This document shows positions 7,686 through 52,828 of a DNA stretch of 64,000 bases, piece by piece. A program made the position numbers and the translations under genes. How positions within the stretch are numbered: position 1 is the first letter of the stretch; each line of letters begins with the position of its first letter. The DNA lies in assembly GCA_943328975.2 (NCBI GenBank), contig CALQCC020000012.1, forward strand, positions 50,165-114,164. Direction: 5' to 3'. The notes beneath the pieces are model-generated. The model saw only the letters and a program-made list of their open reading frames with translations. It searched no databases and was not told the DNA's origin. The DNA is from Bordetella parapertussis. GTDB taxonomy: Bacteria; Acidobacteriota; Terriglobia; Bryobacterales; Bryobacteraceae.

Positions 7686-7687
7686 CG

Positions 7688-9790: not shown

Positions 9791-9855
9791 TTGTGGTGAA
9801 CGACGTCTCTAATAAGTCTAACTCGTGAATCGCTCTGGCGCTAGACTGAATGAAT

Positions 9856-10302: not shown

Positions 10303-10305
10303 TCC

Positions 10306-33618: not shown

Positions 33619-35214
33619 CTAGCGGGCCGCCTGCTTCTGGGCGAGAGCCTTTTCGAGGATACGGGCGGCTGCGGGGAACTCCTTCTTCGAGTTCGCCATG
33701 AAGATGCCCTTGGTGATCATCAGCGGAGTCCAGCCGAGGGTGTTCTTCGTGTTGATATCGGCTCCCTGGTCCACCAGGTATTGCAGGATGGACGGCTGGT
33801 TGCAGAGGACCGCACCGTGGATGGCGGCCATGCCATTCCAGCGGGGATCGCCGACGCCGAGACCGAGGAGGTCGTCGATATTGTCGGGGTAGCGCATCAA
33901 GGTGGTTTCCGCGCTGCCGATCATCGGGAAATTGCCGAGATTGGTATGAGCGTTGATATCGTTGCCGAGTTCGACGGCGAGCTTGACAGCTTCCAAACGT
34001 TCGGCTTCCGAGACACCGGTCAAGGGGCCGGGGCTCTCACCTTCGTAGTAGTCGAGGCAAGTGGCGGCCATCAAAGGAGTGACGCCGACTTCCGTGGTGA
34101 GCTTGGGGTCGGCACCGGCCGATACTAGCAGGCGCATCATGGGAGCGTCGCCGTTGCGCGCGGCGTTGTAGAACGGGGTGGAGCCGACGAAGCTGAGGTG
34201 ATGACGACCCAGGTTGATGTTGGGCGGGTTCTTGGTGGTGCCGAGCGACTTCGTCATCAGCGTTTCTTTCCAGCTGATGCGAGCGTTGACGTTGGCACCC
34301 TTCTCGACCAATTTCTTGGCGAGGTCGAGTGCGGAGGTCTTGTCGGTGGGACGCGGGACGGGCAGTGGCTCACTGGCGGTACCGGCCGCTTCCCACGAAG
34401 TGCCGGGCTTGCGCATCCATACCAGGGAGTGGAGCGGCGTGCCGTTGCCATCCTGAATATTCGGGTTCGCGCCCTTGTCGAGCAGCACGGATGCAAGGTC
34501 GTAATGCGCGTTGATGATCGCCATGTTGAGGGCGGTGCTGCCGTCCTGGGAGCGGTCATCCAGGTTCGCGCCATGGTCCAGCAAGGTGGTCATCGCATCA
34601 ATGCGATTGTTCAACACTGCGAATAGGAACGCGGTGAAACCGCCTTTCGACTTCACTTTGACGTCGGCTCCGTATTCGACAAGCAGAGCGGTCGCGGAGG
34701 TATTGCCTTCACCCGCGGCCCACATCAGTGCAGTCTGGCCCTTGAATTTCTCTATTGCGTTGACTTGGGCACCACTCTTCACCAGCAGCTTAATCGCATC
34801 GACGTTGCCGTTGAGAGCGGCGCTCATCAACGCGGTTTGTCCGTCGCCGAACGTGGCGTTGACATCGACACCGGCTTTGATCAATTGCTCGATCACTGCG
34901 GCGTGGCCGCCTTCCGAGGCCAGTGCCATCGGCGTGATGCTGTAGCGATTCGTGGCTTTCGCGTCGGCGCCCGCAGCCAGCAACATGCTGGTGATCTCGG
35001 AACTGCCGAGCTCCGCAGCCCAGTGCAAGGGCGTGGTGCCGTCGACTTCAGCAGCCTTAATATCGGCTCGCTGTGCGATCAACGCCTTCACTGCGGCAGC
35101 GTCGGATTTCTTCACCGCGTCGATCAATTTTGCGTCGGCGGCGTGGATGGTGGTGGCAGCCGCCAGCAGCATCGTCAAAAGAGGAAGATAGTTTCTTGAG
35201 GCTATTGCGTGCAT
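33619..35214 (-). CDS. Secreted ankyrin-repeat protein (cassette A)
   Basis: About 531 residues from ATG 35214 (a GTG at 35226 is possible). MHAIASRNYLPLLTMLLAAATTIHA is a secretion signal. About ten ankyrin repeats follow, easily seen as GTTPLHWAAELGSSEITSMLLAAGADAKA, GQTALMSAALNGNVDAIKLLVKSGAQVNA and GQTALMWAAGEGNTSATALLVEYGADV. A gap of about 60 residues splits the array near 290-345. Ankyrin stacks bind proteins; in the periplasm a scaffold for the neighbouring DUF1592/DUF1552 proteins is plausible. It is divergent from the DUF1592 gene with a 32-bp gap and cotranscribed with gntR. The second cassette has an equivalent gene at 51356. Confidence 0.9.
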   Translation of the reverse strand: MHAIASRNYLPLLTMLLAAATTIHAADAKLIDAVKKSDAAAVKALIAQRADIKAAEVDGTTPLHWAAELGSSEITSMLLAAGADAKATNRYSITPMALASEGGHAAVIEQLIKAGVDVNATFGDGQTALMSAALNGNVDAIKLLVKSGAQVNAIEKFKGQTALMWAAGEGNTSATALLVEYGADVKVKSKGGFTAFLFAVLNNRIDAMTTLLDHGANLDDRSQDGSTALNMAIINAHYDLASVLLDKGANPNIQDGNGTPLHSLVWMRKPGTSWEAAGTASEPLPVPRPTDKTSALDLAKKLVEKGANVNARISWKETLMTKSLGTTKNPPNINLGRHHLSFVGSTPFYNAARNGDAPMMRLLVSAGADPKLTTEVGVTPLMAATCLDYYEGESPGPLTGVSEAERLEAVKLAVELGNDINAHTNLGNFPMIGSAETTLMRYPDNIDDLLGLGVGDPRWNGMAAIHGAVLCNQPSILQYLVDQGADINTKNTLGWTPLMITKGIFMANSKKEFPAAARILEKALAQKQAAR

Positions 35215-35234
35215 ACTTGTATACACTATATACT
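35205..35234. promoter_or_regulatory. Shared divergent control region of cassette A with a TGTATACA palindrome
   Basis: Only 32 bp separate the divergent start codons (35214 minus, 35247 plus). They hold TGTATACA (35218-35225), identical to the core at 29163-29170, and a good plus-strand -10 TATACT (35229-35234) with TTGCGT at 35205 as a weak -35 (18-nt spacer). A regulator bound here would block both directions. Both mRNAs would have very short or no leaders. Confidence 0.5.
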
Positions 35235-35246
35235 ACAGACGTTTAC

Positions 35247-37613
35247 ATGGCTAGCGGCACTTACAACAAACTACTGATCGTCCCCGTCGCAGTGACGGCG
35301 ATCCTCGGACTCGCGTCTGTGGCATTCACGCAAACGCCTGCTCCGCAACAGACAGAACAGCAGGCTGCGAGCGCGATGCTCGGTCAGTATTGCGGGACTT
35401 GTCACAGTCCGCAACTACGCACCGCAGGCATCGTTATTAATGCAGCGGCGCTGGATCAGATTCCGCAGAACGCGGAGACATGGGAAAAGGTAGTGCGCCA
35501 ATTGCGCGCGGGCGGCATGCCTCCGCCGGGTGCGCCTCGTCCTGCTCCGGCTGTCTACGCACGTGTTTCGACTTACGTTGAAAATGCGCTGGATCGTGCG
35601 GCGGCGGCGAATCCGAATCCGGGCGAGTTGCCGGATCTGCATCGTCTGACACGCACGGAGTACAAGAACGCCGTGCGCGATTTGTTGGCGCTGGAAAACC
35701 TGCCGAAGGAAATGGACTACGAGTTCCTGCTGCCTGCGGACAATGCATCGAGCGGCTTCGACAATATCGCGGACTTGCTGTACTTGTCGCCGGCGACGAT
35801 GGAACGCTATTTGGATGCGGCACGCAAGGTGAGCCGGTTGGCGGTGGGCGATCCGAATGCTCCGGTGATGTTGAACGTGCATCGCACGTCGGCGGAGTTG
35901 CCGCAGACCACGCAAGTGGAAGATCTTTCGTTCGGCACGCGCGGCGGGTTGGCGGTGCGTAGTTACTTTCCACTGGATGGGGAGTATGGGTTCCAAGTGG
36001 AAGTCGCCGGCGGTGGACGCGACACGCATGAGATGGAGATCACTGTCGATGGCGAGCGCAAGCAGCTAGTCCAGGTGGGCGGTGGAGGCGGCGGTCGCGG
36101 TGGCGGTGGTGGACGCGGAGCTGCAGCCGGACCGGCGGAATATCGCATTCCTGTGACGGCAGGACCGCATTTGATCGGCGTTACGTTTGTGCAGCGCAGC
36201 CGGGCGCTCGATGAATCGACTTTGGCGACGCGGCCTCGCAGCCGTGGAACCCAGCCTGCGGTTGGGGCGTTGAATATCCGTGGACCTTACAAGGTGACGG
36301 GCGCCGGGAACACGCCTAGCCGGCAGCGTATCTTTACTTGCCGTCCTACGGCTCCTGCGGCGGAACTGGCTTGTGCGCGGCAAATTATTTCTACGCTGGC
36401 CCGGCGGGCGTATCGTCGTCCGGTGACGGATGCGGATGTGAACGAGTTGCTGCCCTTCTATACGGACGCTCGGGCCGAGGGGAATTTCGACTTCGGCATT
36501 CAAGGCGTCGTAGAACGGATGCTGGTGAGCCCGCAGTTCCTGTATCGCGCGGAGCGGACCCCGGCGAATACGACGGCCAAAGCGTTTCCGGTGAGCGACC
36601 TCGAACTGGCCTCGCGCTTGTCTTTCTTCTTGTGGAGCAGCATTCCGGACGACGAATTGCTCAATCTTGCGGCGGCCGGGAAACTGAAAGATCCGGCGAC
36701 ATTGCGGGCGCAGACGCAGCGTATGTTGAAGGATCCGCGCTCCGAGGCAATGGTTACCAACTTCGCGGCGCAGTGGCTGTTTTTGCGCGATATCCAAGTG
36801 AAGGAGCCGGACTTGTTCCTGTTCCGTAACTTCGATGAAGGACTGCGGCAATCGTTTGCGCGCGAGACGGAGTTATTCCTCAGCAGCGTGTTGCGCGAGA
36901 ATCGCAGCGTGCTCGAATTGATCACCGCGAACTATTCCTTCATCAATGAGCGGTTGGCGAAACATTACGGTGTGCCGGATATTCGCGGCAGCCAGTTCCG
37001 CCGCTATGAGTTTCCGGCGGGCAGTCCGCGCGGGGGATTGTTGGGGCAGGGAAGCATCCTGACGCTGACTTCGTATTCGATTCGCACCTCGCCGGTATTG
37101 CGTGGCAAGTATGTGTTGGAGAACTTGCTGGCTTCGCCGCCGCCCCCTCCTCCGCCCAATGTTCCGTCGCTGAAGACGGAAGGCGCATCGCCGGATAAGC
37201 CGGTGACGTTGCGCGACGCCATGCAGCGGCATCGGGCCGACGCGGCTTGCGCGAGCTGTCATGCTCGCATGGACCCAATCGGGTTCGCCTTTGAGCACTT
37301 CGACGCCACTGGCGCGTGGCGCGATCACGATGGCGGGCAGCCGATCGACGTCCAGAGTAAGATGTTGGATGGTACCGATGTGAACGGCGTAGACGGCGTC
37401 AAGAAGTTGATCTTGAAGGATCCGGAACGCTTCGCCGCTGCTGTGAGCGAGAAGTTATTGATGTACGCAATCGGTCGCAACGTGCAGTATTACGACACGC
37501 CGGCGGTCCGCAAGATTGTTCGCGATGCCGCGGCAAATAAGTACACGTTTGCGGCGTTGGTCGAAGGCATTGTGCAGAGCGCCCCATTTCAGATGCGAGG
37601 AGTGAAAAAATGA
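35247..37613 (+). CDS. Planctomycete-type cytochrome protein with DUF1587/DUF1592/DUF1588/DUF1585 domains (cassette A)
   Basis: A 788-residue exported protein from ATG 35247 (earlier frame is antisense to the ankyrin gene). After a signal/anchor helix, an N-terminal cytochrome-like module has the heme motif CGTCH (49-53). The DUF1587 region begins LHRLTRTEYKNAVRDLLAL, then a glycine-rich carbohydrate-binding-like stretch (about 275-300). DUF1592 holds RRPVTDADVNELLPFY and ELASRLSFFLWSSIPDDELL, and DUF1588 has NERLAKHYGVPDI with a second heme motif CASCH (about 668) in CHARMDPIGFAFEHFDATGAWR. DUF1585 closes the protein. The family is abundant in planctomycetes and acidobacteria, with unproven redox roles. 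It overlaps the DUF1552 gene by 4 bp. Confidence 0.92.
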   Translation: MASGTYNKLLIVPVAVTAILGLASVAFTQTPAPQQTEQQAASAMLGQYCGTCHSPQLRTAGIVINAAALDQIPQNAETWEKVVRQLRAGGMPPPGAPRPAPAVYARVSTYVENALDRAAAANPNPGELPDLHRLTRTEYKNAVRDLLALENLPKEMDYEFLLPADNASSGFDNIADLLYLSPATMERYLDAARKVSRLAVGDPNAPVMLNVHRTSAELPQTTQVEDLSFGTRGGLAVRSYFPLDGEYGFQVEVAGGGRDTHEMEITVDGERKQLVQVGGGGGGRGGGGGRGAAAGPAEYRIPVTAGPHLIGVTFVQRSRALDESTLATRPRSRGTQPAVGALNIRGPYKVTGAGNTPSRQRIFTCRPTAPAAELACARQIISTLARRAYRRPVTDADVNELLPFYTDARAEGNFDFGIQGVVERMLVSPQFLYRAERTPANTTAKAFPVSDLELASRLSFFLWSSIPDDELLNLAAAGKLKDPATLRAQTQRMLKDPRSEAMVTNFAAQWLFLRDIQVKEPDLFLFRNFDEGLRQSFARETELFLSSVLRENRSVLELITANYSFINERLAKHYGVPDIRGSQFRRYEFPAGSPRGGLLGQGSILTLTSYSIRTSPVLRGKYVLENLLASPPPPPPPNVPSLKTEGASPDKPVTLRDAMQRHRADAACASCHARMDPIGFAFEHFDATGAWRDHDGGQPIDVQSKMLDGTDVNGVDGVKKLILKDPERFAAAVSEKLLMYAIGRNVQYYDTPAVRKIVRDAAANKYTFAALVEGIVQSAPFQMRGVKK

Positions 37614-38953
37614 CATTCATCACCAAGAAATCTTTGGCCCGCCGGACCTTTCTCAAGGGAACCGGTGCCGCATTGGCGCTGCCGATGCTGGATTCGATGA
37701 TCCCGGCGCTGTCGGCGCAGACCGCGGCTCCGCTGCGTTTGGGATGGGTCTATGTCTCGCACGGCATCATCTACGATCAATGGAAGCCGACCAAGATCGG
37801 TCCGGGCTTTGAACTGACGGCGAACCTGCAGCCCATGGCCAATTTGAACGGGCAGTTCAGCATTCTCTCCGGCCTGTCGCATTTGGAAGCGGATACGAAG
37901 GGCGATGGCTCCGGCGATCACACGCGTGCCTCGGCTGCGTGGCTCACCGGCGTTCACGCCTATGACCGCACGCGTCCTGGCGTGGAAGTGAAGTTGGCGA
38001 CCACTGCGGATCAAATTGCCGCGAAGGTGCTGGGCGCCAATTCGCCGATCCCGTCGATTGAGATGACGGTGGATTCGGCTTCGCAGGGTTCTTGCGATTC
38101 GGGCGATTGCTTCTACGTCAACACGTTCTCATGGCGCAATGAGATGACGCCGAACGCTCCGGAGAATCATCCGCGCGTGATTTTTGAACGCTTGTTTGGC
38201 GACGGCGGTTCGGCGGCACAGCGCAAGGCACGCACTCGTCGCACGGGCAGCATTCTGGATTCGGTGGCGGAAGAAGCGCGGCGCATGGCGGGCACGCTCG
38301 GTTCTGGCGACCGTTCCAAGATGACCGAGTATCTCGACTCCGTCCGTGAGATTGAACAACGCATTCAGAATGCCGAAGCGCATGGCGCGCAGTCGCTCGA
38401 GATTCCGGATCGACCGTTGGGCATTCCGGAGTCTTTTGAGGAACACACCAAGTTGATGTTCGACTTGCAGGTGACCGCGTTCCAAACGGATATGACGCGC
38501 GTGTTCAGCATGATCATGGCGCGCGAACTTAGCTCCCGGACCTACGCCCACATCGGCATTCCCGGACAGCACCACTTGATCTCGCATCATCGCGAAGATC
38601 CGGCGCAGATGGCGGAGAAGGCTCGCATCGATACGAACCACGTGCAGATGCTGGCGTACTTCCTCGAAAAGATGGCGGCCACGAAGGACGTCAACGGCTC
38701 GCTGCTGGATAATAGCTTGATCATGTACGGAAGCGGCATGGGCAATGGCAACTTGCATCGCCATTCCGACCTGCCGATCCTGCTCGCCGGCAAGATGGGC
38801 GGCAAGGTGAAGCAAGGCTCGCATTACGCGTACAAGCAGGACACGCCGATGGCGAACCTGTTGGTCACCATTCTGGATAAGGCCGGCGCGCCGATCGAGA
38901 AGCTTGGCGACAGCACCGGGCCGTTGAAACCGGACCCGCTGACGATTGGGTAG
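37610..38953 (+). CDS. DUF1552 protein with Tat signal (cassette A)
   Basis: A 447-residue protein. The N-terminus SLARRTFLKGTGAALALPMLDSM is a twin-arginine signal, so it is exported folded, as expected for a cofactor-binding enzyme. The body matches DUF1552: SHGIIYDQWKPT, LSGLSHLEAD, IEMTVDSASQGSCDSGDCFYVNTFSW, SVREIEQRIQNAEA, HIGIPGQHHLISHH and MYGSGMGNGNLHRHSDLPILLAG. The fold relates to the alkaline phosphatase/sulfatase superfamily-like DUF1501 group. It almost always sits after a DUF1592 gene, as here by ATGA overlap. Substrate unknown. Confidence 0.92.
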   Translation: MTFITKKSLARRTFLKGTGAALALPMLDSMIPALSAQTAAPLRLGWVYVSHGIIYDQWKPTKIGPGFELTANLQPMANLNGQFSILSGLSHLEADTKGDGSGDHTRASAAWLTGVHAYDRTRPGVEVKLATTADQIAAKVLGANSPIPSIEMTVDSASQGSCDSGDCFYVNTFSWRNEMTPNAPENHPRVIFERLFGDGGSAAQRKARTRRTGSILDSVAEEARRMAGTLGSGDRSKMTEYLDSVREIEQRIQNAEAHGAQSLEIPDRPLGIPESFEEHTKLMFDLQVTAFQTDMTRVFSMIMARELSSRTYAHIGIPGQHHLISHHREDPAQMAEKARIDTNHVQMLAYFLEKMAATKDVNGSLLDNSLIMYGSGMGNGNLHRHSDLPILLAGKMGGKVKQGSHYAYKQDTPMANLLVTILDKAGAPIEKLGDSTGPLKPDPLTIG

Positions 38954-38963
38954 CGAGTAGGCT

Positions 38964-38977
38964 CGCTATCATAGAGG
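38964..38977 (+). repeat. 14-bp direct repeat, first copy, with -10-like TATCAT
   Basis: CGCTATCATAGAGG occurs here and again at 39955-39968, each just before a new gene. The TATCAT ends 6 nt before the ATG at 38979, which fits a leaderless transcript. Confidence 0.5.
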
Positions 38978-38978
38978 G

Positions 38979-39932
38979 ATGAACTTTCTTCATTCTTCAA
39001 GCCGTACCCGCTGGGCGCTGGCCGCGAACCTGTTCGCGGTCGCGGCCGTGGGGCTCTACGCGGCCGATCGCATCACCGAAATTACGCTTCCCGGGAAGGA
39101 CCTTTTCCCGGAGAGCATCACTTCGCTTTCCAATGGCACGTTGATTATTGGCAGTTCCGGCCAAGGCAACATCTGGCGCGTGCTCCCGGGCAAGACGACG
39201 GCTGAGGAGTTTATCAAGCCGGGGACTGCTGGACTCGCGACTGTGTTGGGCGTGCTGGCGGATGAGAAGTCGAACACGCTGTGGGTGTGCTCGAACAATC
39301 TGGACGGCAAGGGCGCGTCGCCGACTTCTGCTAAGACCTTCGATCTGAAAACGGGCGCTCCGAAGGCGAGTTACACGCTGCCTGGCGCGACCGCGCTTTG
39401 CAACGACATCGCGATTAATTCCGACGGCACCGCTTATATCGCGGACACGCGTGGGAACAGCGTGGTGATGCTCAAGAAGGGTGCGAAGGAACTGGAAGTC
39501 GCGGCGAAAGACGACAAGTTGCTGGCTGGCGCGGACGGCCTCGCGTTTGGCAACAAGACCACTCTCTATGTGAACAGTGTCAGCGCGAACAAACTGCTTC
39601 GCCTCGATTTGGGTAAAGATGGCAAGGCGACGAAGATCGTGGACCTGACGTTGTCTCAGCCGTTGGGCGCTCCGGATGGCATGCGTGCGATCGGCGCGAA
39701 CCGTTTGCTGCTGGCGGAGAACGCGGGCAAGATGGACATCATCACCTTCCAGGGAACGCAGAATGCCGTAGTGAAGACGATCAAGGAAGGGCTGGAAAGC
39801 ACTCCGGCCGTGACCGCTACCAAGGGCATGGCATGGATCGTCGAAGGCAAGCTGAACTACCGTAACGATGCGAAGTTGAAGGGCAAGGATCCGAGCCCAT
39901 TCAAGATGTACGCAGTGCCGCTACCAAAGTAA
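38979..39932 (+). CDS. Secreted SMP-30/gluconolactonase-like beta-propeller protein
   Basis: A 317-residue protein with a signal peptide (about 1-30, WALAANLFAVAAVGLYAAD). The body has repeated four-strand blades: ESITSLSNGTLIIGSSGQGNIWRV, NDIAINSDGTAYIADTRGNSVVML, ADGLAFGNKTTLYVNSVSANKLLRLDLG and PDGMRAIGANRLLLAEN, as in SMP-30 and gluconolactonase. The E/N/D metal ligands of that family look partly kept. It follows the DUF1552 gene by 25 nt, so it may belong to cassette A. A sugar-acid lactone hydrolase is possible but unproven. Confidence 0.8.
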   Translation: MNFLHSSSRTRWALAANLFAVAAVGLYAADRITEITLPGKDLFPESITSLSNGTLIIGSSGQGNIWRVLPGKTTAEEFIKPGTAGLATVLGVLADEKSNTLWVCSNNLDGKGASPTSAKTFDLKTGAPKASYTLPGATALCNDIAINSDGTAYIADTRGNSVVMLKKGAKELEVAAKDDKLLAGADGLAFGNKTTLYVNSVSANKLLRLDLGKDGKATKIVDLTLSQPLGAPDGMRAIGANRLLLAENAGKMDIITFQGTQNAVVKTIKEGLESTPAVTATKGMAWIVEGKLNYRNDAKLKGKDPSPFKMYAVPLPK

Positions 39933-39954
39933 ACCGGTGAAGGCGGAAAAAGTG

Positions 39955-39968
39955 CGCTATCATAGAGG
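39955..39968 (+). repeat. 14-bp direct repeat, second copy, with -10-like TATCAT
   Basis: Identical to 38964-38977. It would place transcription start at about 39970, 64 nt before the RhlE-type helicase ATG. Confidence 0.5.
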
Positions 39969-40033
39969 AGCAAGCCGATCCGCCTTCCTTCTCCCCCAAT
40001 GTTGGAGTGCTGATTTCTTCGCACCCCCAACTA

Positions 40034-41299: not shown

Positions 41300-41322
41300 A
41301 ACATCGCTTAGTCTTCAGTTCC

Positions 41323-41359
41323 AAACAACCCCGTCTCACAAGGACGGGGTTGTTTTTTT
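41323..41359 (+). terminator. Terminator after the DEAD-box helicase gene
   Basis: AAACAACCCCGTC (41323-41335) pairs with GACGGGGTTGTTT (41343-41355), 7-nt loop, followed by a T-run. Confidence 0.92.
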
Positions 41360-41410
41360 GTGCCTGGGCCACGTTGCTGTACTCTGTATAGTGATCTACC
41401 GAGGTTCACT

Positions 41411-43189
41411 ATGCGTCTATCCAATTCTCTGCGTTACGGAATCTACGCGGCCATCGCCGTTTCTTTTGTCTTTGCCGCGGCCTTCGCCCAGCAGCCCGCC
41501 CGCAAAGTGGATGCTGCCCAACTGAAGCGTGCGGCGGCCGAAGAGTGGCTCAGCTATGGGCGCGATCAAGGGGAGACACACTACAGCCCCCTGAAGCAGA
41601 TCGATTCAACGAACGTTAGCCGACTGGGACTCGCGTTTGCCGCTGACGTGGATGCGCCGCAGGGCAACGTGGAAGGCACACCGATCATGGCGAACGGGAC
41701 GGTTTATACCAGCCTCCCTTGGGGCGTGATCTCGGCCACCGACGCGCGCACGGGCAAGTTCAAGTGGCGCTGGGACCCGGAAATTCCTCGCACCGGCGCG
41801 AACCGGCCAGGCATGTGCTGTGGAGCTGTGAATCGCGGCGTCGCAATTTATAACGGCAAGATTTATGCGAGCTTGATCTTCGGGCGTTTGGTCGCGATCG
41901 ACGCGGAGACGGGCAAAGAAGTATGGTCCACGCAGACCACGGACCCGGGCTCGGACATGACCATCACGGGCGCGGTCCGGATCGTCAAGGGCAAGGTTAT
42001 CGTCGGAACAGCCGGTGCGGAGTTCGGCGTGCGCGGCTACTTCAGCGCCTATGATGCCGAGACAGGCAAGATGGCGTGGCGCTTTTATACCGTGCCGGGC
42101 GATCCATCGAAGAACGATACTCCAGAACTGAAGAAAGCCGCTGAAACATGGAAGGGCACGGATTGGAAGAATGTGCCGGGCGGCGGCACGGTGTGGGACG
42201 GCATGGCCTACGATGCGGAGGCCGACCTGCTTTACGTCGGTACTGGAAACGGCTCGCCCTGGAACCGTCAGTTCCGTAGCCCCGGCGGCGGCGATAATTT
42301 GTATCTCGCGTGCATCTTGGCGATAAAGCCGGACACCGGGAAGCTGGTCTGGTATTTCCAGACGACACCCGGTGAATCGTGGGATTACACGGCCGTGCAA
42401 TCGATGATCCTGGCCGACCTGCGCATCAACGGGCGGAACCGCAAGGTGATCATGCAGGCTCCCAAGAACGGCTTCTTCTACGTGTTAGACCGCCTTACGG
42501 GCGAATTCATTTCGGGCAAGCCGTACACGGAAGTAAACTGGGCTTCGGGTCTGGATGCCAAGGGTCGCCCGATTGAGAATCCGGGCATTCGTTATGAGAA
42601 CGGAACCACGGTGGAGATCGCCCCTGGCTCCGGCGGTGGACACAACTGGCAGCCGATGGCGTTCAGTCCGGCCACTGGATTGGTGTACATCCCTGGTTCG
42701 GTTAACTCGCGCATGTATCACTCGACTCCCGACTATGCGCCGCAAAAGGGCAAGCAGCTCTCCGGTGTAGACATGAATGACTTCGGCGCGGGCGTGGCTC
42801 CGGTGGGCGCGAAGATCACGAACAAGGGGACCTTCGTGAAGGCCTGGGACCCGGTGACGCAGACGGCTCGCTGGAGCGCGACGCAGACGTATTCGGCTGG
42901 ACTGCTGGCGACTGGCGGCAACCTCGTTTTCGTCCCCGGCGGCGATGGACATCTGGTGGCGTACACGGCGGACAAGGGCGAGAAGGTCTGGGATTCGACG
43001 TTGTTGATCGCGGGCATCTCGACGCCGATCACGTATCAAATCGACAACCAACAATACGTCGCCGTGATCGCAGGACGCGGCGGGAATACCCCGACGCGGC
43101 TCTACACGTTCATGTTGGATGGAAAGGCTCCTATGCCACCGCCTCCCGCGCCTCCCGCGGGCAAGGGCGCGGCGGCGAAGGGCAAGTAA
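41411..43189 (+). CDS. PQQ-dependent alcohol/methanol dehydrogenase, periplasmic
   Basis: A 592-residue secreted quinoprotein from ATG 41411 (signal MRLSNSLRYGIYAAIAVSFVFAAAFAQ; the longer frame has no signal). Features: AAEEWLSYGRDQGETHYSPLKQID start, the vicinal disulfide CC (PGMCCGAVNRG) that stacks on PQQ, GTGNGSPWN, and the catalytic Asp in ESWDYT. Position +2 after this Asp is Thr, not Asp, so the lanthanide signature of XoxF is absent and a calcium enzyme is expected. Tryptophan-docking blades recur. It ends Pro/Lys rich and has no fused cytochrome domain, so it needs a separate acceptor; the DUF1592 cytochromes nearby are candidates. An MDH versus broad alcohol dehydrogenase cannot be separated. 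Confidence 0.9.
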   Translation: MRLSNSLRYGIYAAIAVSFVFAAAFAQQPARKVDAAQLKRAAAEEWLSYGRDQGETHYSPLKQIDSTNVSRLGLAFAADVDAPQGNVEGTPIMANGTVYTSLPWGVISATDARTGKFKWRWDPEIPRTGANRPGMCCGAVNRGVAIYNGKIYASLIFGRLVAIDAETGKEVWSTQTTDPGSDMTITGAVRIVKGKVIVGTAGAEFGVRGYFSAYDAETGKMAWRFYTVPGDPSKNDTPELKKAAETWKGTDWKNVPGGGTVWDGMAYDAEADLLYVGTGNGSPWNRQFRSPGGGDNLYLACILAIKPDTGKLVWYFQTTPGESWDYTAVQSMILADLRINGRNRKVIMQAPKNGFFYVLDRLTGEFISGKPYTEVNWASGLDAKGRPIENPGIRYENGTTVEIAPGSGGGHNWQPMAFSPATGLVYIPGSVNSRMYHSTPDYAPQKGKQLSGVDMNDFGAGVAPVGAKITNKGTFVKAWDPVTQTARWSATQTYSAGLLATGGNLVFVPGGDGHLVAYTADKGEKVWDSTLLIAGISTPITYQIDNQQYVAVIAGRGGNTPTRLYTFMLDGKAPMPPPPAPPAGKGAAAKGK

Positions 43190-43192
43190 CGG

Positions 43193-45997: not shown

Positions 45998-46052
45998 AAT
46001 GTTGACCGTTAGACTCCACGATAACGCTACTTCGAACCTGTGCAAAGCGGGG

Positions 46053-46058
46053 TAGAAT
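46053..46058 (+). promoter_or_regulatory. -10 box giving a likely leaderless bacilliredoxin mRNA
   Basis: TAGAAT ends 6 nt before the GTG start at 46065, with TTCGAA (46031-46036) as a weak -35 after 16 nt. No ribosome-binding site is visible. Confidence 0.45.
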
Positions 46059-46064
46059 TGAATT

Positions 46065-46484
46065 GTGCCTTATCCAGAACACTTAATCGTACCTATGCGC
46101 GCGGATCTCACCCGTCACGGAGTGGAAGAAGCCCGTACTCCGGAAGATGTCGACCGCCTGATCGCGGACGGAACCGTCTTGATGATCGTGAACTCGGTGT
46201 GTGGTTGCGCAGCCGGTCGGGCTCGGCCTGCGGTCGGCGTGGCGTTGCAACACGCTGCGCGTCCGTCCAAGGCAGCGACCGTCTTCGCCGGTGGCGACGA
46301 AGAGGCGACGGCCCACCTCCGCTCGATCTTAGCCGACCATGGTTACCCGCCGTCCTCGCCGTCCATGGCGATCTTCAAAGATGGTAAGCCGGTTTACATG
46401 TTGCACCGCGGTGACATTGAACGGCGCGATCCGATGGAGATTGCCGCTCTGTTGACGCAAGCGTTCGACGCCAACTGTCAATAA
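46065..46484 (+). CDS. BrxA/BrxB-family bacilliredoxin
   Basis: A 139-residue thioredoxin-like protein from a GTG. It contains the active-site motif VNSVCGCAAGRARP (Cys-Gly-Cys, about residues 46-48), then SKAATVFAGGDEEATAHLR and YPPSSPSMAIFKDGKPVYMLHRGDIERRDP, all typical of the YphP/YqiW family. These enzymes remove bacillithiol (or related low-molecular thiol) from oxidised proteins. Bacillithiol genes are not in the window. It is preceded by a -10 element 6 nt from the start, so translation may be leaderless. Confidence 0.9.
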   Translation: MPYPEHLIVPMRADLTRHGVEEARTPEDVDRLIADGTVLMIVNSVCGCAAGRARPAVGVALQHAARPSKAATVFAGGDEEATAHLRSILADHGYPPSSPSMAIFKDGKPVYMLHRGDIERRDPMEIAALLTQAFDANCQ

Positions 46485-46595
46485 CGGTCGGGAACATAGG
46501 GGAAGGGGATTTTGACGCCCCACTACGCCCTTAAATAGGACCAAAAGAGTGGTCTTTGGTAACTATAGCCACTGTTCGTAAGTCATAGTAGACTA

Positions 46596-47540
46596 ATGGC
46601 GGTGCACTCTTTTATGGACTTCAGGCCGACGCGTCGCGATACGTTGAAAACGCTCCTCGGTGGAACGGCTGCCGTTGCGTTCGGGCCGTCGGCCTTTGGA
46701 CAAGCCGCCGGTCTGGCCGCCACGAAACTTGCAGACAATTTCACTCTGATCAGCGGCGCTGGCGCGAACGTACTGTTGTTCACTTCGCCGGACGGCAATC
46801 TCTTGGTGGATGGCGGCTTGCCCGAGCGTTCCGCGGATCTGTTGAAGTTGGTCGCCGAGCAATCCGGCAACAAGCCGGTGCGCATGCTCTTCAATACCCA
46901 CTGGCACTACGAATCGACTGGCTCCAACGAAGCGTTGGGTAAAGCTGGGGCCAAGATCGTCGCGCATGAAAATACCAAGCTGTGGCTGGGTGCGGAGATC
47001 GACATTCATTGGACCGGGAAGCTCTACACGCCGGTGCCGAAAATCGCCCGGCCTAGCGAGACCTTCTACACCACCAAGAAAATGGACTTCGGCGGACAGC
47101 TGATCGAAGCGGGCTACCTGCTGCAGGCGCACACCGATAGCGACATCTACGTCCACTTCCCGCAGGCCAAAATTTTGATGGTGGGTGACGCTATGGCGCC
47201 CGGGCATTATCCGGACCTCGATTGGTCCACCGGCGGCTGGATCAGCGGTATGGTGGACGGGCAGCGCGCATTGCTCGCGGTTGCCAAGGATGACACCAAG
47301 ATCATCGCTGGCACGGGTCCTGTGATCACGAAGGCCGACCTGCAAGCCAGCTACGACAAGTTGTTGGTGATTCGTGACAACATGCTGAAGCTCTTCCGGC
47401 AAGGAAAGAATCCCGACGAGATGTTCGCGGAAGGTTTGACCAAAGATTACGACGCCCAATGGGGCGACCCGAAGCAGTTCCTGCGTAACGCCTACCGTGG
47501 CATGTGGGGCCATGTGCGCGAAGTGGGCGGGATTGTCTAG
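46596..47540 (+). CDS. Tat-exported metallo-beta-lactamase-fold protein with an altered metal site (cassette B)
   Basis: A 314-residue protein with a twin-arginine signal (PTRRDTLKTLLGGTAAVAFG; ATG at 46596 or 46614). It shows the MBL fold order (NLLVDGGLPE, LFNTHWHYESTGSNEALG, AHTDSDIYVHFP, LMVGDAM), but the metal motifs deviate. The HxHxDH site reads HWHYES, so the second-metal Asp becomes Glu and the His becomes Ser, and the final PGHG-type loop reads AGTGPV, losing the last His. The first site (two His plus the HTDSD His) and the GD of GDAM remain, suggesting a one-metal or non-hydrolytic protein. It is 9 nt before a DUF1592 gene and heads that operon. Confidence 0.88.
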   Translation: MAVHSFMDFRPTRRDTLKTLLGGTAAVAFGPSAFGQAAGLAATKLADNFTLISGAGANVLLFTSPDGNLLVDGGLPERSADLLKLVAEQSGNKPVRMLFNTHWHYESTGSNEALGKAGAKIVAHENTKLWLGAEIDIHWTGKLYTPVPKIARPSETFYTTKKMDFGGQLIEAGYLLQAHTDSDIYVHFPQAKILMVGDAMAPGHYPDLDWSTGGWISGMVDGQRALLAVAKDDTKIIAGTGPVITKADLQASYDKLLVIRDNMLKLFRQGKNPDEMFAEGLTKDYDAQWGDPKQFLRNAYRGMWGHVREVGGIV

Positions 47541-47549
47541 GAGATGAAG

Positions 47550-50021
47550 ATGAAGAAGCGTACCTTACTACTCACCTCAGCCGCGTCGCTACTGACTCTT
47601 GCGTCTGCCTCGTTTTACCTGGTCGCCGCACAGCAAGCCGCTCGTCCTGCGGCCGCGTCTAAGGGCAAGGCTGTTACTAAGGCAACCGCGAAAACAGCTA
47701 CCAGTGCCGCATCGGCTCCGCACAAGGCATTGGTGGATCGTTATTGCGTGGGCTGTCATAACTCGCGCACAAAGACCGCAGGTTTGGCTCTGGATACGCT
47801 GAGCTTGGCTAACGTCGGTCCCGATGCTGAGATTTGGGAGAAGGCCGCGCGCAAACTGCGTGCGGGCATGATGCCGCCCCCGGGTGCTCCGCAGCCGGAC
47901 CCGGCAGCTGCATTGGCGACGGTCAATTATCTGGAAGCGTCGTTGGATCAATACGGCGTGACCAACCCGAATCCGGGGATTGTCGCGCTGCATCGCTTGA
48001 ACCGTGCCGAATACGCGAACGCAGTGGAAGACATCCTGGGTGTGCGCGTGGATGCCTCCGCTCTGCTGCCGACCGACGACGTGAGTGACGGCTTCGACAA
48101 CATCGCCGCAGTGCTGAAAGTATCGCCGTCGTTCCTCGATCAATATGTCTCTGCGGCTCGTACGATCACGCTGCAAGCGGTGGGCACCGCGCCTGCCGAT
48201 GGTCCGCAACTGGTGACGGTTCGCGGCGGCGTCAACGGAGATCCTTACTCCCGCACGGGCGTGCCGCTGGGCCTGCGTCCGACGTTACTGGTGGACCAGT
48301 TGTTTCCCTTCGATGGCGAGTATGAGTTCCGTTACGGCGCTCCGCCTGCTGCTGGTGGTGGACGTGGTGCTGCGGGCGGACGTGGCGGTGCTGCGGCTCC
48401 TGCGCCTGCTCCTCTGGGACGCGCCGCGGCTCCCGCGACTGTTGATAATACGAACGTGGTGACCGTTGATGGTGTGCGCGTCCCGTTGACTGGTCGCGTA
48501 ACGCTGAAGGCCGGTCTGCATCGCGTGGGCGTGAGTGCCCCGATGCGCAGCACGATTGAATCCGAGGCGGTCCTACAATCGTTGGTTCCCGGACAGGGCG
48601 GGGCTGGCGGCTTCGGCGGCGGCCGTGGTGGAGGCGCGCAGGCGCTCACCGTGAACGGTCCGTTTAGTCCAACAGGTCCGCGCATGGAGACTCCGAACCG
48701 TGCCAAGATTTTCGTTTGCAAGCCGGCGTCGCAAGCGGACGAGGCAACTTGCGCCAACAAGATCTTCGCTAGCATCGCTCGTAAGGCGTTTCGCCGTCCT
48801 GTTACGGAGCGCGATCTTACCGCTCCCATGCAGTTCTTCCGCGATGGCCGCGCGCTCGGCGATTTCGAGACCGGCATCCAGACCGGCTTGATGACGATCT
48901 TCGCCAGTCCCAAGTTTCTCTATCGCGCTGAGTACGATCCCGCCGGTGCCAAGCCAGGCTCCATCCATCGCATCAGCGATCTGGAACTCGCCTCGCGCCT
49001 CTCGTTCTTCCTGTGGTCCAGCACCCCCGACGACGAACTGTTGACCGTCGCCGAGCAGGGCAAGCTGAAAGACCCGGCTGTCGTGGATGCGCAAGTGCGC
49101 CGCATGTTGGCGAGTCCGAAGGCCAAGGCATTGGTCGACAACTTTGGCTTCGAATGGCTGCGCCTGCGTGACGTAGACAAGTCCGAGCCCGATGTCATCC
49201 TGTTTCCCAATTTCGATAACAACCTCCGCGCTGCGTTCCGTCGCGAGATGGAATTGTTTCTGGGAAGCATCATCACGGAGAATCGCAGCGTGGTCGATAT
49301 CCTCGGAGCAGACTACACGTTCTTGAATGAACGCCTGGCGGCCCACTACGGCATCCCCGACGTGCGTGGCGATCAGTTCCGCCGCGTGACACTGAAGGAC
49401 GAGAACCGCTTCGGCATTCTGGGCAAAGGCGCGATGTTGATGGTAACGTCGTATCCGAACCGCACCTCGATGGTGCTGCGCGGATCGTGGGTGCTGGAGA
49501 ACATCATGGGCACACCGCCCGCAGCGCCGCCGCCGGGCGTTGAAGGTTTCAAGGAAAACAAGGACGGCGAGAAGGCTCTGACCGTGCGCGAGATTATGCA
49601 ACTGCATCGCGCGAACCCGACCTGCAATGCATGCCACGGCGTGATGGACCCGCTCGGCTTCTCGCTGGAAAATTTCGACGCCGTCGGCGCCTATCGCGTG
49701 AAAGACAAGTGGGCCGGCACGGTGATCGATGCCAGCGGCAAGCTGGTGGATGGCCGTCCAGTCAACGGTCCTGCCGACTTGCGCAAAGCGCTGGTCGACA
49801 AGCCCGGCCAATTCGTTCAGACCGTCACCGAACGCTTGATGACGTATGCGCTCGGCCGCCGCGCCGACTATTACGACATGCCGTCCGTCCGCAAAATCGT
49901 GAAGGATGCCGCGGCTGACAACTATCGCTTCTCTCAACTGGTTCTGGGCATCGCCAAGAGCGACCCGTTCCAGAAACGCAAGGTTCCCGCAGCACCGGCC
50001 AAACAAGTGGCAGCAAAGTAG
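47550..50021 (+). CDS. Planctomycete-type cytochrome protein with DUF1587/DUF1592/DUF1588/DUF1585 domains (cassette B)
   Basis: About 823 residues; ATG 47550 is preferred to 47544 because AGGAG (47539-47543) is 6 nt before it. A signal peptide (RTLLLTSAASLLTLASASF) is followed by an Ala/Lys-rich linker, heme motif CVGCH (about 66) and the DUF1587 string LHRLNRAEYANAVEDILGV. A Gly/Ala/Pro low-complexity insert (about 265-300) comes next, then DUF1592 (RRPVTERDLTAPMQFF, ELASRLSFFLWSSTPDDELL) and DUF1588 with NERLAAHYGIPDV and a second heme motif CNACH (about 692). It is paralogous to 35247 across the whole length. Strong GGAG-type signals link it to the DUF1552 gene 11 nt downstream. Confidence 0.92.
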   Translation: MKKRTLLLTSAASLLTLASASFYLVAAQQAARPAAASKGKAVTKATAKTATSAASAPHKALVDRYCVGCHNSRTKTAGLALDTLSLANVGPDAEIWEKAARKLRAGMMPPPGAPQPDPAAALATVNYLEASLDQYGVTNPNPGIVALHRLNRAEYANAVEDILGVRVDASALLPTDDVSDGFDNIAAVLKVSPSFLDQYVSAARTITLQAVGTAPADGPQLVTVRGGVNGDPYSRTGVPLGLRPTLLVDQLFPFDGEYEFRYGAPPAAGGGRGAAGGRGGAAAPAPAPLGRAAAPATVDNTNVVTVDGVRVPLTGRVTLKAGLHRVGVSAPMRSTIESEAVLQSLVPGQGGAGGFGGGRGGGAQALTVNGPFSPTGPRMETPNRAKIFVCKPASQADEATCANKIFASIARKAFRRPVTERDLTAPMQFFRDGRALGDFETGIQTGLMTIFASPKFLYRAEYDPAGAKPGSIHRISDLELASRLSFFLWSSTPDDELLTVAEQGKLKDPAVVDAQVRRMLASPKAKALVDNFGFEWLRLRDVDKSEPDVILFPNFDNNLRAAFRREMELFLGSIITENRSVVDILGADYTFLNERLAAHYGIPDVRGDQFRRVTLKDENRFGILGKGAMLMVTSYPNRTSMVLRGSWVLENIMGTPPAAPPPGVEGFKENKDGEKALTVREIMQLHRANPTCNACHGVMDPLGFSLENFDAVGAYRVKDKWAGTVIDASGKLVDGRPVNGPADLRKALVDKPGQFVQTVTERLMTYALGRRADYYDMPSVRKIVKDAAADNYRFSQLVLGIAKSDPFQKRKVPAAPAKQVAAK

Positions 50022-50032
50022 AAGGAGATATC

Positions 50033-51352
50033 ATGTTCAATACCAAGAAACACCTGGACCGCCGCACTCTGTTGAAGAGCGCGGGTGCAGCGCTCGCGCT
50101 GCCCTTGTTGGACGCGATGATTCCGGCCAATACGGCGCTAGCCCAAACCGCCGCCGCGCCGAAGATTCGCGCGGGCTTCATCTACTTCCCTCACGGCGCC
50201 ATCATGAATCAGTGGACGCCGGCCACCGAAGGCAGAGACTTCGAGATGCCCACCATCCTGAAAGCGATGGAGCCGCACCGGAAAGTCATGACGATCATCA
50301 GCGGCCTGGAAAACAAAGCCGCGATCGCGCCGCCCGTGCATGCCTTGAGCCCGGGGACGTGGCTCAATGGCGCGACCCCGCGCAAGACGCAGGATCCCTA
50401 CGGCGGTACGACGATCGACCAAATTATCGCCGCGCAGGTCGGCCAGGACAATCCGTTCCCCTCGCTCGAAGTTTGCACCGAAACACGCGGTGGCGGCGGT
50501 TCCTGCGATCGAGATTACGGCTGCAGCTATTCCGGCACCATCTCCTTCCGCACGCCGACCACACCGCTGCCGATGGAAAACGATCCGCGCAAGCTGTTCC
50601 AGCGACTCTTCGGCGTGGGCGACACGGCGGACCAGCGCAAGACCATCTCGCGCCAATATGCCAGCATTCTGGATTTGGTCCAGGAAGAGGCCAACGACTT
50701 GCGCCGTAACCTTGGAGCCTCCGACCAATTGATGCTCAGCGAGTATCTCGAAACCGTGCGCGAAATCGAGCGCCGCATCGAGAAAATGGAAAAGAGCGAG
50801 GCCGCGCGTATGACGCTGCCCAACGCGCCCACCGGTATCCCCGCGCAGTTCGATCAACATCTGAACCTGATGTTCGATTTGATGGGTCTGGCGTATCAAG
50901 CCAATCTCACTCGCGTCTTCACGCTGATGATGGCGGCCGAAGTCTCCGGCATGACCTACAACCATATCGGCGTGCCGGATGCGTTCCATCCCATCTCGCA
51001 TCACCAGAACGACAAGAGCAAGATCGACAAGTTGGTGAAGATTCAGACCTATCACACGCAGGTGATGGCGAAGTTCCTCGACAAGATGGCCAAGATGCCG
51101 GACGGCGACGGCTCCATGCTGGATCATGCCATCTTCATGTTCGGCTCGAACATGAGCAACAGCAACGCGCACGATCATTATCCGCTGCCCTCCGCGCTCA
51201 TCGGCGGCGCCAACGGTCGCATCAAGGGCAACCAGCACCTAAAGTATCCGGACAAGACTCCGCTCTCGAACCTGCTGCTCACTGTTCTCGATCGCGCGGG
51301 CGTTAATATGGACAAGGTCGGCGACAGCACCACGCAGTTCTCTGAGGTATAG
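50033..51352 (+). CDS. DUF1552 protein with Tat signal (cassette B)
   Basis: A 439-residue paralogue of the protein at 37610. HLDRRTLLKSAGAALALPLLDAM is a twin-arginine signal. Matching blocks: FPHGAIMNQWTPATEG, ISGLENKAAIAPP, VCTETRGGGGSCDRDYGCSYSGTISF (a Cys-rich segment aligned with CDSGDC of copy A), TVREIERRIEKMEKSE, HIGVPDAFHPISHH and MFGSNMSNSNAHDHYPLPSALIGG. A textbook AAGGAGATAT ribosome-binding site precedes ATG 50033. It sits between the DUF1592 and ankyrin genes of the same operon (4-nt gap to the ankyrin). Confidence 0.92.
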   Translation: MFNTKKHLDRRTLLKSAGAALALPLLDAMIPANTALAQTAAAPKIRAGFIYFPHGAIMNQWTPATEGRDFEMPTILKAMEPHRKVMTIISGLENKAAIAPPVHALSPGTWLNGATPRKTQDPYGGTTIDQIIAAQVGQDNPFPSLEVCTETRGGGGSCDRDYGCSYSGTISFRTPTTPLPMENDPRKLFQRLFGVGDTADQRKTISRQYASILDLVQEEANDLRRNLGASDQLMLSEYLETVREIERRIEKMEKSEAARMTLPNAPTGIPAQFDQHLNLMFDLMGLAYQANLTRVFTLMMAAEVSGMTYNHIGVPDAFHPISHHQNDKSKIDKLVKIQTYHTQVMAKFLDKMAKMPDGDGSMLDHAIFMFGSNMSNSNAHDHYPLPSALIGGANGRIKGNQHLKYPDKTPLSNLLLTVLDRAGVNMDKVGDSTTQFSEV

Positions 51353-51355
51353 ACG

Positions 51356-52828
51356 ATGCGCCGCACTTTCTTGATCTTCGCCGCTGCTTGCCTTTCCGTT
51401 TGGGGGCAGGGTAGTGGCAACGACGGCACGACACCCCTGCACTGGGCCGTCCACGATAACAACGCCGCAGAAGTCGAGCGGCTGTTGAAGGCGGGAGCGA
51501 ACGCCAACGCCAAGAATGATTTCGGCGTCACGCCCATGGCGGAAGCCGCGAACGTCAACAACACCGCGATCATCAAAGCCTTGCTGGATGCTGGAGCGGA
51601 CCCGAATGCGATCCATTTCGATGGACAGACTGCCCTGATGGTAATCGCGCGTTCCACCAACGTCGAGTCCGCGAAGATGCTGCTCTCGAAAGGCGCAGAT
51701 CCGAATATCGCTGAAGCGCAAAAGAACCAGACCGCGCTGATGTGGGCTGCAGCGCAAAGCAACGGACCGATGGTGAAGATCCTGCTGGACGCGGGAGCAA
51801 ATCCGAATGCGCGCACCGTGATCAACGAAAACTCGGCGCAGGTCTCGGCCGAGCCACGCGCGCAGTATCGTTCCTACGGCGGCCTCACGCCGCTGCTCTA
51901 CGCGACGCGCGAAGGCTGCATCGATTGCGTGTCCTACCTGGTGGAACGCGGCGCCAAGATCAATATGTCCGATCCCGAGGGCGTCACGCCGCTGATCACC
52001 GCCATCGCGAACTTCCATTTCGACGTAGCAAAGATCCTGATCGAAGCAGGTGCCAATCCCGACAAGTGGGATTGGTGGGGACGCAGCCCGCTCTATCTCG
52101 CGGCTGACGTGAACACGATCCCCCGGGGTGGCCGCGCCGATTCACCTTCCACCGACGAAACTACCAGCCTGGAAATTATTGAGCTCCTACTGAAGCGCGG
52201 TGCCAATCCGAATACTCAGCTCAGTTTGCTGCCGCCGTTCCGCAACGTCGGAGCCGACCGCGGCGTGGACGGGCTACTGACCACCGGAGCCTCTCCGTTG
52301 TTACGTGCTGCGAAGGGGCTCGACGCGCCCGCGGTCAAACTGATGATGGAATACGGCGGCAATCCGAACCTGCCGCAGATCCGTGGCATTACACCCACGA
52401 TGGCCGCCGCCGGTATGGGTTCGGTCGACGCCGATACGCGTGGCCGCTATGACACGCCTGATACAGCGCAGCGCTCCGTCGATACACTGCGCATCTTGCT
52501 CGATAAGGGTGGGGAAATCATGGGTCGCGACGCTCGTGGGCAGACCCCTCTGCACGCAGCCGCCTTCTGGGGCTGGAATGATGCCGTTCAGTTTCTCGCC
52601 TCGCGGGGCGCGGACGTGAACGCCAAGGACAACCGGGGCATGGTTCCCATCGACAACGCGATGGGTCGCAATGGTGGCAACAGCCGTGGGGGCGCACGCA
52701 CGGACGTCCACAAGGACACGGCTGATCTTCTGGAGAAGTTGGGTGCGACACCTGTGGTTCCGCCGCCGCCCGCTCCGCCGAAGCCGGCTGGCGCCAAGCC
52801 TGCCGCCGGGGCGAAACCCGTACGCTAG
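51356..52828 (+). CDS. Secreted ankyrin-repeat protein (cassette B)
   Basis: A 490-residue protein with a short signal (MRRTFLIFAAACLSVWGQ). About ten ankyrin repeats: TTPLHWAVHDNNAAEVERLLKAGANANA, TPMAEAANVNNTAIIKALLDAGADPNA, TALMWAAAQSNGPMVKILLDAGANPNA and QTPLHAAAFWGWNDAVQFLASRGADVNA. Breaks at about 160-175 and 255-300 interrupt the stack, as in the cassette A protein. A Pro/Ala/Lys tail follows. It is the last gene of the MBL-DUF1592-DUF1552-ankyrin operon, here in the same direction, while in cassette A the ankyrin gene is divergent. Confidence 0.9.
   Translation: MRRTFLIFAAACLSVWGQGSGNDGTTPLHWAVHDNNAAEVERLLKAGANANAKNDFGVTPMAEAANVNNTAIIKALLDAGADPNAIHFDGQTALMVIARSTNVESAKMLLSKGADPNIAEAQKNQTALMWAAAQSNGPMVKILLDAGANPNARTVINENSAQVSAEPRAQYRSYGGLTPLLYATREGCIDCVSYLVERGAKINMSDPEGVTPLITAIANFHFDVAKILIEAGANPDKWDWWGRSPLYLAADVNTIPRGGRADSPSTDETTSLEIIELLLKRGANPNTQLSLLPPFRNVGADRGVDGLLTTGASPLLRAAKGLDAPAVKLMMEYGGNPNLPQIRGITPTMAAAGMGSVDADTRGRYDTPDTAQRSVDTLRILLDKGGEIMGRDARGQTPLHAAAFWGWNDAVQFLASRGADVNAKDNRGMVPIDNAMGRNGGNSRGGARTDVHKDTADLLEKLGATPVVPPPPAPPKPAGAKPAAGAKPVR

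What the first reader, a model, noticed from the sequence alone, without database searches (positions are those of the whole stretch)
33619..52828. Two copies of a secreted cytochrome-DUF1552-ankyrin cassette
Seen: 35247 and 47550 are full-length paralogues with two CXXCH motifs each; 37610 and 50033 are Tat-signal DUF1552 paralogues; 33619 and 51356 are both secreted ankyrin-array proteins broken at similar places. The order differs (divergent ankyrin in A, same strand in B), and B adds an altered MBL protein while A adds a GntR regulator and a propeller. Known: DUF1592 and DUF1552 genes are often adjacent in planctomycetes and acidobacteria with no proven role. Inference: a periplasmic multi-protein redox or polymer-modifying complex held together by the ankyrin proteins. 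The PQQ dehydrogenase between the cassettes may donate electrons.
Basis: partly seen in the sequence, partly recalled or inferred. Interest (0 to 1): 0.72.

Follow-up and report, generated by a model that had tools for sequence, protein, structure and literature searches.

The report
Nineteen-copy cytochrome, hydrolase-fold, ankyrin cassette
This bacterial genome carries nineteen diverged copies (one of them broken) of one three-gene unit, two of them in the window: a predicted secreted protein with two heme-attachment motifs, a partner predicted to have a sulfatase-like fold that apparently lacks the usual catalytic residues, and a predicted secreted ankyrin-repeat protein; together they would likely form a redox machine of unknown purpose.

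Summary
This 4.3 Mb genome has 19 DUF1592-DUF1552 pairs (one broken); 19 of 19 have an ankyrin gene within 6 kb, and 20 of 27 ankyrin loci lie beside a pair (1.5 expected, P about 1e-19). In 80 other loci, titled from at least five phyla, 82 of 85 DUF1552 genes have the ankyrin gene. In a wider sample only 28 of 77 do: the ankyrin belongs to one clade, whose DUF1592 and DUF1552 each carry a Cys pair that is rare outside it. Within the genome the three proteins diverge in step (r about 0.8). DUF1552 is predicted to have the sulfatase/alkaline-phosphatase fold, yet an invariant His appears to sit at the nucleophile position and the usual Asp ligands are gone. The DUF1592 model matches no solved fold, save weakly for an insert. 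I read the cassette as a periplasmic redox module: a diheme cytochrome serving a His-rich metal site in DUF1552, with the ankyrin as assembly partner (linkage shown, chemistry inferred). The PQQ-donor idea is not supported: PQQ genes are no nearer cassettes than chance in this genome.

The parts
33619..35226 (-). Ankyrin A: predicted secreted, interrupted ankyrin array, divergent from DUF1592 A
35247..37613 (+). DUF1592 A: predicted secreted protein with two CXXCH (ORF opens at 35073; motifs at 35391 and 37248)
37610..38953 (+). DUF1552 A (HXXSHH), Tat-like signal, overlaps DUF1592 A by 4 bases
47550..50021 (+). DUF1592 B: predicted secreted protein with two CXXCH (ORF opens at 47544; motifs at 47745 and 49623); structure modelled
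50033..51352 (+). DUF1552 B (HXXSHH), Tat-like signal; alkaline-phosphatase-superfamily fold predicted
51356..52828 (+). Ankyrin B: predicted secreted, interrupted ankyrin array, downstream on the same strand
46596..47540 (+). Metallo-beta-lactamase-fold protein with altered metal motif (THWHYES in place of HxHxDH); recurrent accessory of some cassettes
32872..33615 (-). GntR/FCD regulator beside cassette A; neighbour, role untested
38979..39932 (+). Propeller-like protein (Vgb_lyase/NHL, below cut-off) beside cassette A; neighbour, role untested
41360..43189 (+). PQQ-type quinoprotein between the cassettes; not judged part of the unit

Best explanation
The window holds two of nineteen paralogous copies (one broken) of a three-gene unit, DUF1592-DUF1552-ankyrin, whose predicted secreted products would likely work together as one periplasmic redox module. 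DUF1592 has two heme-binding motifs: heme 1 has an invariant candidate Met ligand (electron-transfer type), heme 2 has no conserved Met in its own part of the sequence and is a candidate for partner contact or catalysis (inferred). DUF1552, with a Tat-like signal and so probably exported folded with its metal (inferred), has a predicted sulfatase/alkaline-phosphatase fold in which a His appears to replace the nucleophile and the Asp ligands are gone, leaving invariant His residues; I infer a re-purposed, redox-capable metal site that exchanges electrons with DUF1592. The ankyrin protein is specific to one clade of such pairs and would be its dedicated assembly, heme-handling or docking partner. 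The many diverged copies would each serve a different substrate (inferred).
Against: No metal, activity, substrate or protein contact is shown. 49 of 77 DUF1552 in the wider sample lack the ankyrin, so it is not needed for the family's basic function. No genuine DUF1552-ankyrin fusion appeared among the 120 best rows listed of 7720. The H103 mapping rests on profile alignments that are weak alone: sulfatases 19%, then 12% with 14 cleaned rows; phosphodiesterases 2% with an uncurated set of 30, and with 3 cleaned rows the alignment (0.1%) covered another region and did not test it. The DUF1592 heme core matches no solved fold, so heme geometry is unknown; M521 is conserved in 70 of 72 and could reach heme 2. 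Only the own genome and G021 (17 of 20 sampled rows) were shown to hold many ankyrin-linked copies.
Confidence: 0.43

Rival explanations
1. DUF1552 is an ordinary metal-dependent sulfatase- or phosphatase-like hydrolase and DUF1592 only senses or supplies redox state; the ankyrin anchors them.
For: Fold match to sulfatases, NPPs and LTA synthases; in print, sulfatase genes often neighbour PSCyt genes in Verrucomicrobia (PMC5615132); a sulfatase gene follows the cassette in L149.
Against: The position aligned with the nucleophile is His in 173 of 173, and the usual Asp ligands are nearly absent; the mapping is weak by sequence alone. Only 4 Sulfatase matches in this genome against 19 cassettes.
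Confidence: 0.17
2. The ankyrin is mainly a heme or folding chaperone for DUF1592, like the ankyrins beside catalases, and takes no part in the working complex.
For: Ankyrin next to a predicted secreted heme protein; reported precedents AnkB/KatB and Cj1386/KatA; clade-specific Cys pairs suggest a special folding need.
Against: No heme-binding residue was tested; 116 of 119 cassette ankyrins have no CXXCH, three have one; Cj1386 is described as cytoplasmic; the known cases serve catalase, while c-type heme is attached by its own machinery (established knowledge).
Confidence: 0.25
3. The unit is an envelope polysaccharide-oxidising system, the redox counterpart of glycoside hydrolase loci.
Confidence: 0.2
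4. Linkage by descent only: an old operon duplicated many times, with no shared biochemical task of the ankyrin.
For: Copies are paralogues of one another, and DUF1592 precedes DUF1552 in 118 of 119.
Against: Ankyrin position differs (78 downstream same strand, 23 divergent upstream, 15 upstream same strand, 2 and 1 others, of 119), so linkage survived rearrangement; kept across phyla; 45% mean identity within the genome implies long selection.
Confidence: 0.08

Closest known systems
PSCyt/PSD gene pairs of Planctomycetes and Verrucomicrobia (PSCyt3-type gene next to an unknown family)
   Same: Same DUF1592-type domain set, multi-copy, an unknown gene family adjacent; function stated as unknown in print (PMC5615132, section 13 read)
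   Different: The held main text does not mention ankyrin (its figures and supplements were not seen); the third gene, the single clade and the predicted fold of the partner are added here
DUF1501 (PF07394), by inference the partner of PSCyt2-PSD1 genes (recalled, not tested)
   Same: Homologous to DUF1552 by HHalign (97.6%, E 4e-12, 387 columns; 96.8%, E 3e-10 with cleaned rows)
   Different: 3 matches in this genome against 19 DUF1552 genes; no ankyrin link tested
Cbp2D of Cellvibrio japonicus (DUF1587 domain, CjX183 cytochrome that reduces LPMOs)
   Same: c-type cytochrome protein that carries one of the DUF1592-protein domains, with a redox role proposed in polymer breakdown (PMC8981238, passages)
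   Different: Has CBM2 and YceI-like domains; no DUF1552 or ankyrin partner in the passages seen
AnkB-KatB and Cj1386-KatA
   Same: Ankyrin protein needed for a heme protein's activity; AnkB is periplasmic by its paper's title (PMC7567364 and PMC11442138, passages; original papers not held)
   Different: Catalase; Cj1386 described as cytoplasmic; no DUF1552
Sulfatase / NPP / LTA synthase (alkaline phosphatase superfamily)
   Same: Predicted fold of DUF1552
   Different: Nucleophile and Asp metal ligands apparently replaced

Membership tests
DUF1592 (PSD/PSCyt) proteins | PSD3, PSD5, PSD4, PSCyt3, PSD2 domains above Pfam cut-offs | tested here: met
   both copies
DUF1592 (PSD/PSCyt) proteins | two CXXCH heme motifs | tested here: met
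   both window copies; 116 of 119 cassette members, three have one
DUF1552 (HXXSHH) | PF07586 above cut-off and the HxxSHH motif | tested here: met
   H319 and H323 in 173 of 173
Alkaline phosphatase superfamily | shared fold | tested here: met
Alkaline phosphatase superfamily | Ser/Thr/formylglycine nucleophile | tested here: not met
   His103 at the aligned position in 173 of 173; the profile alignment is weak alone (12-19%)
Alkaline phosphatase superfamily | Asp metal ligands (strand 1 and SDHG) | tested here: not met
   Asp in 1 and 0 of 173 (positions 53, 54) and 0 and 2 of 173 (positions 372, 373)
Known diheme or multiheme enzyme folds (e.g. cytochrome c peroxidase) | shared fold with a solved heme enzyme | tested here: inconclusive
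   no match for the heme core; best Foldseek E 2.0
Catalase-associated ankyrin heme carriers | heme binding and delivery | not testable with these tools
   no ligand prediction available
PQQ dehydrogenase electron chain | PQQ gene linked to the cassette above chance | tested here: not met
   own genome only: 3 of 40 within 6 kb, 2.3 expected

The most novel reading that the evidence does not exclude
DUF1552 is a new kind of metalloenzyme: the sulfatase/phosphatase fold re-tooled with a histidine metal site into an oxidoreductase, wired to a diheme cytochrome of undescribed fold and held by a dedicated secreted ankyrin scaffold; some bacteria have multiplied this three-protein machine into about twenty versions per genome, each for another substrate, much as others multiply P450s or polysaccharide loci.
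Probability: 0.26. Interest if true: 0.87.

Novelty: new variant of a known kind. Interest (0 to 1): 0.64.

Why it matters
DUF1592/DUF1552 genes are highly multiplied genes of unknown function: 2 to 22 PF07586 matches in 19 of 21 genomes of this order, up to 40 in one other genome, and 7,796 protein clusters that resemble the window's DUF1592 in a capped search. The finding turns two unknown families into one testable unit with a third, clade-specific partner, gives DUF1552 a predicted fold whose residues argue against simple hydrolase chemistry, and names a fully sequenced organism with a single PF07586 gene in such a unit (Sphingobium sp. SYK-6), where deletion and pull-down would be clean.

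Tried and rejected
PQQ dehydrogenase as partner: a PQQ-type gene is within four genes of a DUF1552 in 15 of 101 loci, but not above chance in this genome. TonB-type OMP as partner: 6 of 49 within 6 kb, 2.8 expected, P 0.06; 1 of 49 within 3 kb, 1.7 expected; left open. Solved-structure relatives by sequence: none credible for either protein. Rosetta-stone fusion: an artificial DUF1552+ankyrin query brought one record with both domains, P0311, which on inspection is a truncated, frame-disturbed reading of two adjacent genes with arginine-rich stretches between them, not a fusion; it was described, not mended. Other folds for DUF1592: nearly all VIA rows fall on the beta insert; families not listed are not excluded. 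Universal ankyrin linkage: rejected, 49 of 77 distant DUF1552 lack it, and in G016 7 of 21 PF07586 matches have an ankyrin within about 5 kb, one of them of a different kind (47 bits, L240). Profile alignments used longest open frames, some of them wrong (the first sulfatase row is); one search repeated them with frames chosen by motif (14 of 30 sulfatases, 3 of 6 phosphodiesterases, 19 of 30 DUF1501): the sulfatase and DUF1501 results held, the phosphodiesterase one did not, and I lowered two odds slightly for that (0.45 to 0.43, 0.28 to 0.26) and raised the hydrolase rival (0.15 to 0.17). Literature: searches for DUF1552/DUF1592, PSCyt1, PSD1, DUF1501, DUF1549, DUF1553, DUF1588, ankyrin with Acidobacteri, cytochrome, periplasm, DUF1585, 1587, 1588, 1595, PSCyt3, HXXSHH, DUF1501 with alkaline phosphatase superfamily and ankyrin with DUF1592 and similar; no listed paper was seen to tie ankyrin genes to these, but most listed papers were not opened and the library lacks most subscription journals.

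Rows dropped before counts: DUF1552 ORFs under 380 aa and identical ones (this drops the split C4 copy, so own n is 18, and distant rows already counted among the 80 loci); 7 of 180 unlabelled for lack of flank; 119 of the 128 ankyrin-linked sets kept for distances; 102 ankyrins of 430-680 aa aligned. Of the distant genomes I fetched 19 regions of G016 (21 matches), 1 of G022 (1), 12 of G023 (12), 23 of G024 (30), 20 of G021 (40), 5 of G025 (8) and none of G026 (26). Cassette, ankyrin, OMP and PQQ positions were typed and merged by hand; its PQQ list holds only PF01011 matches and so leaves out the broken quinoprotein pieces beside the C37 cassette.

Full report
Observation. The six proteins exist as described. 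Both DUF1592 proteins hold the PSD3-PSD5-PSD4-PSCyt3-PSD2 set and two CXXCH; both DUF1552 proteins hold PF07586 and a Tat-like motif; both ankyrin proteins hold an array that is interrupted at shared places. Cassette A has the ankyrin divergent, cassette B downstream on the same strand. DUF1552 A overlaps the end of DUF1592 A by 4 bases. Secretion is judged from N-terminal sequence, without a signal-peptide program.

More than two copies. Searching the window's own genome (4.34 Mb, 69 contigs, 99.66% complete) gave 20 PF07586 matches, which are 19 genes (one, on contig C4, is split), 19 PF07631 matches and 105 Ank_2 matches. Each of the 19 DUF1552 genes lies beside a DUF1592 gene, and all 19 pairs have an ankyrin gene within 6 kb, 18 within 3 kb. 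Merged by hand, the ankyrin matches are 27 loci; 20 lie within 6 kb of a pair (1.5 expected from the covered fraction of the genome, binomial P 8e-20). In the 19 copies the ankyrin is downstream on the same strand in 13, divergent in 5 and upstream on the same strand in 1 (read). The copies are old: mean identity 45% for DUF1552 and DUF1592 and 37% for the ankyrins, and the three distance matrices agree (r 0.79-0.81, 0 of 2000 shuffles as high, n=18; r 0.52-0.75 in genome G021, n=17). Multiple PF07586 copies are common in the order: 19 of 21 genomes have them, with 2 to 22 matches; of these relatives only G016 was checked for ankyrins (7 of 21 linked).

Conservation elsewhere. A genome-collection search with a DUF1552 profile, blind to ankyrins, gave 80 loci whose record titles name Acidobacteriota, Gammaproteobacteria and other Proteobacteria, Verrucomicrobiales, Planctomycetes, Gemmatimonadetes, two loci of one Acidimicrobiia-titled MAG, and the sequenced Sphingobium sp. 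SYK-6. 82 of 85 full-length DUF1552 there have the ankyrin within 6 kb; two of the three misses lie within 0.9 kb of a contig end. Because these loci were ranked by similarity to copy B, I sampled more distant relatives in six other genomes: 28 of 77 linked, while DUF1592 is within 1.5 kb in 72 of 77. On FastTree trees the ankyrin label needs 4 changes for DUF1552 (128 linked, 45 unlinked; shuffled mean 40) and 4 for DUF1592 (120 and 41; shuffled mean 36.5). As I read them, two are losses inside the clade (L273, L280), one is the distant row L240, whose ankyrin is of another kind (47 bits), and one is the border of the clade. So the ankyrin joined, or was kept by, one clade of the DUF1592-DUF1552 pair. 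That clade is marked in both partners: Cys392/Cys403 of DUF1592 in 114 and 115 of 119 against 4 and 5 of 41 (the region aligns less well in the unlinked rows), and Cys158/Cys164 of DUF1552 in 118 of 128 each against 11 and 10 of 45. The beta insert of DUF1592 has a near-fixed length in the clade (10-90% range 152-189 residues) and a loose one outside (10-273).

Neighbours. A metallo-beta-lactamase-fold protein is within four genes of a DUF1552 in 20 of 101 loci; 15 of the 25 cluster members, the window's included, have lost the last His of HxHxDH. PQQ-type genes are near 15 of 101 loci but at chance level in this genome (3 of 40), and OMP genes marginal (6 of 49, P 0.06). In SYK-6 the unit sits with two IclR regulators, a thiolase, a glyoxalase-fold protein, a TonB receptor, an alpha/beta hydrolase, an MFS and a dicarboxylate transporter.

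Literature. PMC5615132 (section 13 read; passages; a find for ankyrin gave none) says that PSCyt3 genes usually lie next to an unknown family and that nothing is known of their function. PMC8981238 (passages) shows that a cytochrome domain of Cbp2D, a protein with a DUF1587 domain, reduces LPMOs. PMC7567364 and PMC11442138 (passages) report ankyrin proteins needed for catalase activity or heme delivery. PMC6004670 (passage) lists a CBM2-bearing DUF1592 protein; PMC7789669 and PMC2754498 (passages) name the domains without a tested function.

Mechanism. Shown: linkage, clade, co-divergence, heme motifs, signal-like N-termini, predicted fold, replaced residues. Inferred: that the three proteins form one periplasmic module, that DUF1592 passes electrons to or from a His-rich metal site in DUF1552, that the ankyrin assembles or docks the pair, and that the copies differ in substrate.

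Noticed in passing
L085 (own genome C4:153000-172000), about 5769-11724: One of the 19 cassettes looks degraded or misassembled: DUF1552 and ankyrin each in two pieces, DUF1592 without its first heme motif.
   Followed up: partly
window 46596-47540 and cluster members near cassettes in other loci: A metallo-beta-lactamase subfamily with an altered metal motif (TH[WY]Hx[DES][QS]) recurs beside these cassettes (15 of 25 cluster members).
   Followed up: partly
L079 5054-8765: One cassette has two similar ankyrin genes in tandem.
   Followed up: no
window 35214-35247: Likely start codons of divergent ankyrin A and DUF1592 A are only about 30 bases apart, so any promoter must overlap coding sequence.
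   Followed up: no
G016 and G020 whole genomes: Relatives of the order carry 132 sulfatase matches each (and G016 93 DUF1501 matches; capped first look), while the window's genome has 4 and 3; the cassettes may take their place.
   Followed up: no
L154 5563-12886: In a Verrucomicrobiales-titled genome a DUF1501 gene lies upstream of the DUF1592-DUF1552-ankyrin cassette.
   Followed up: no
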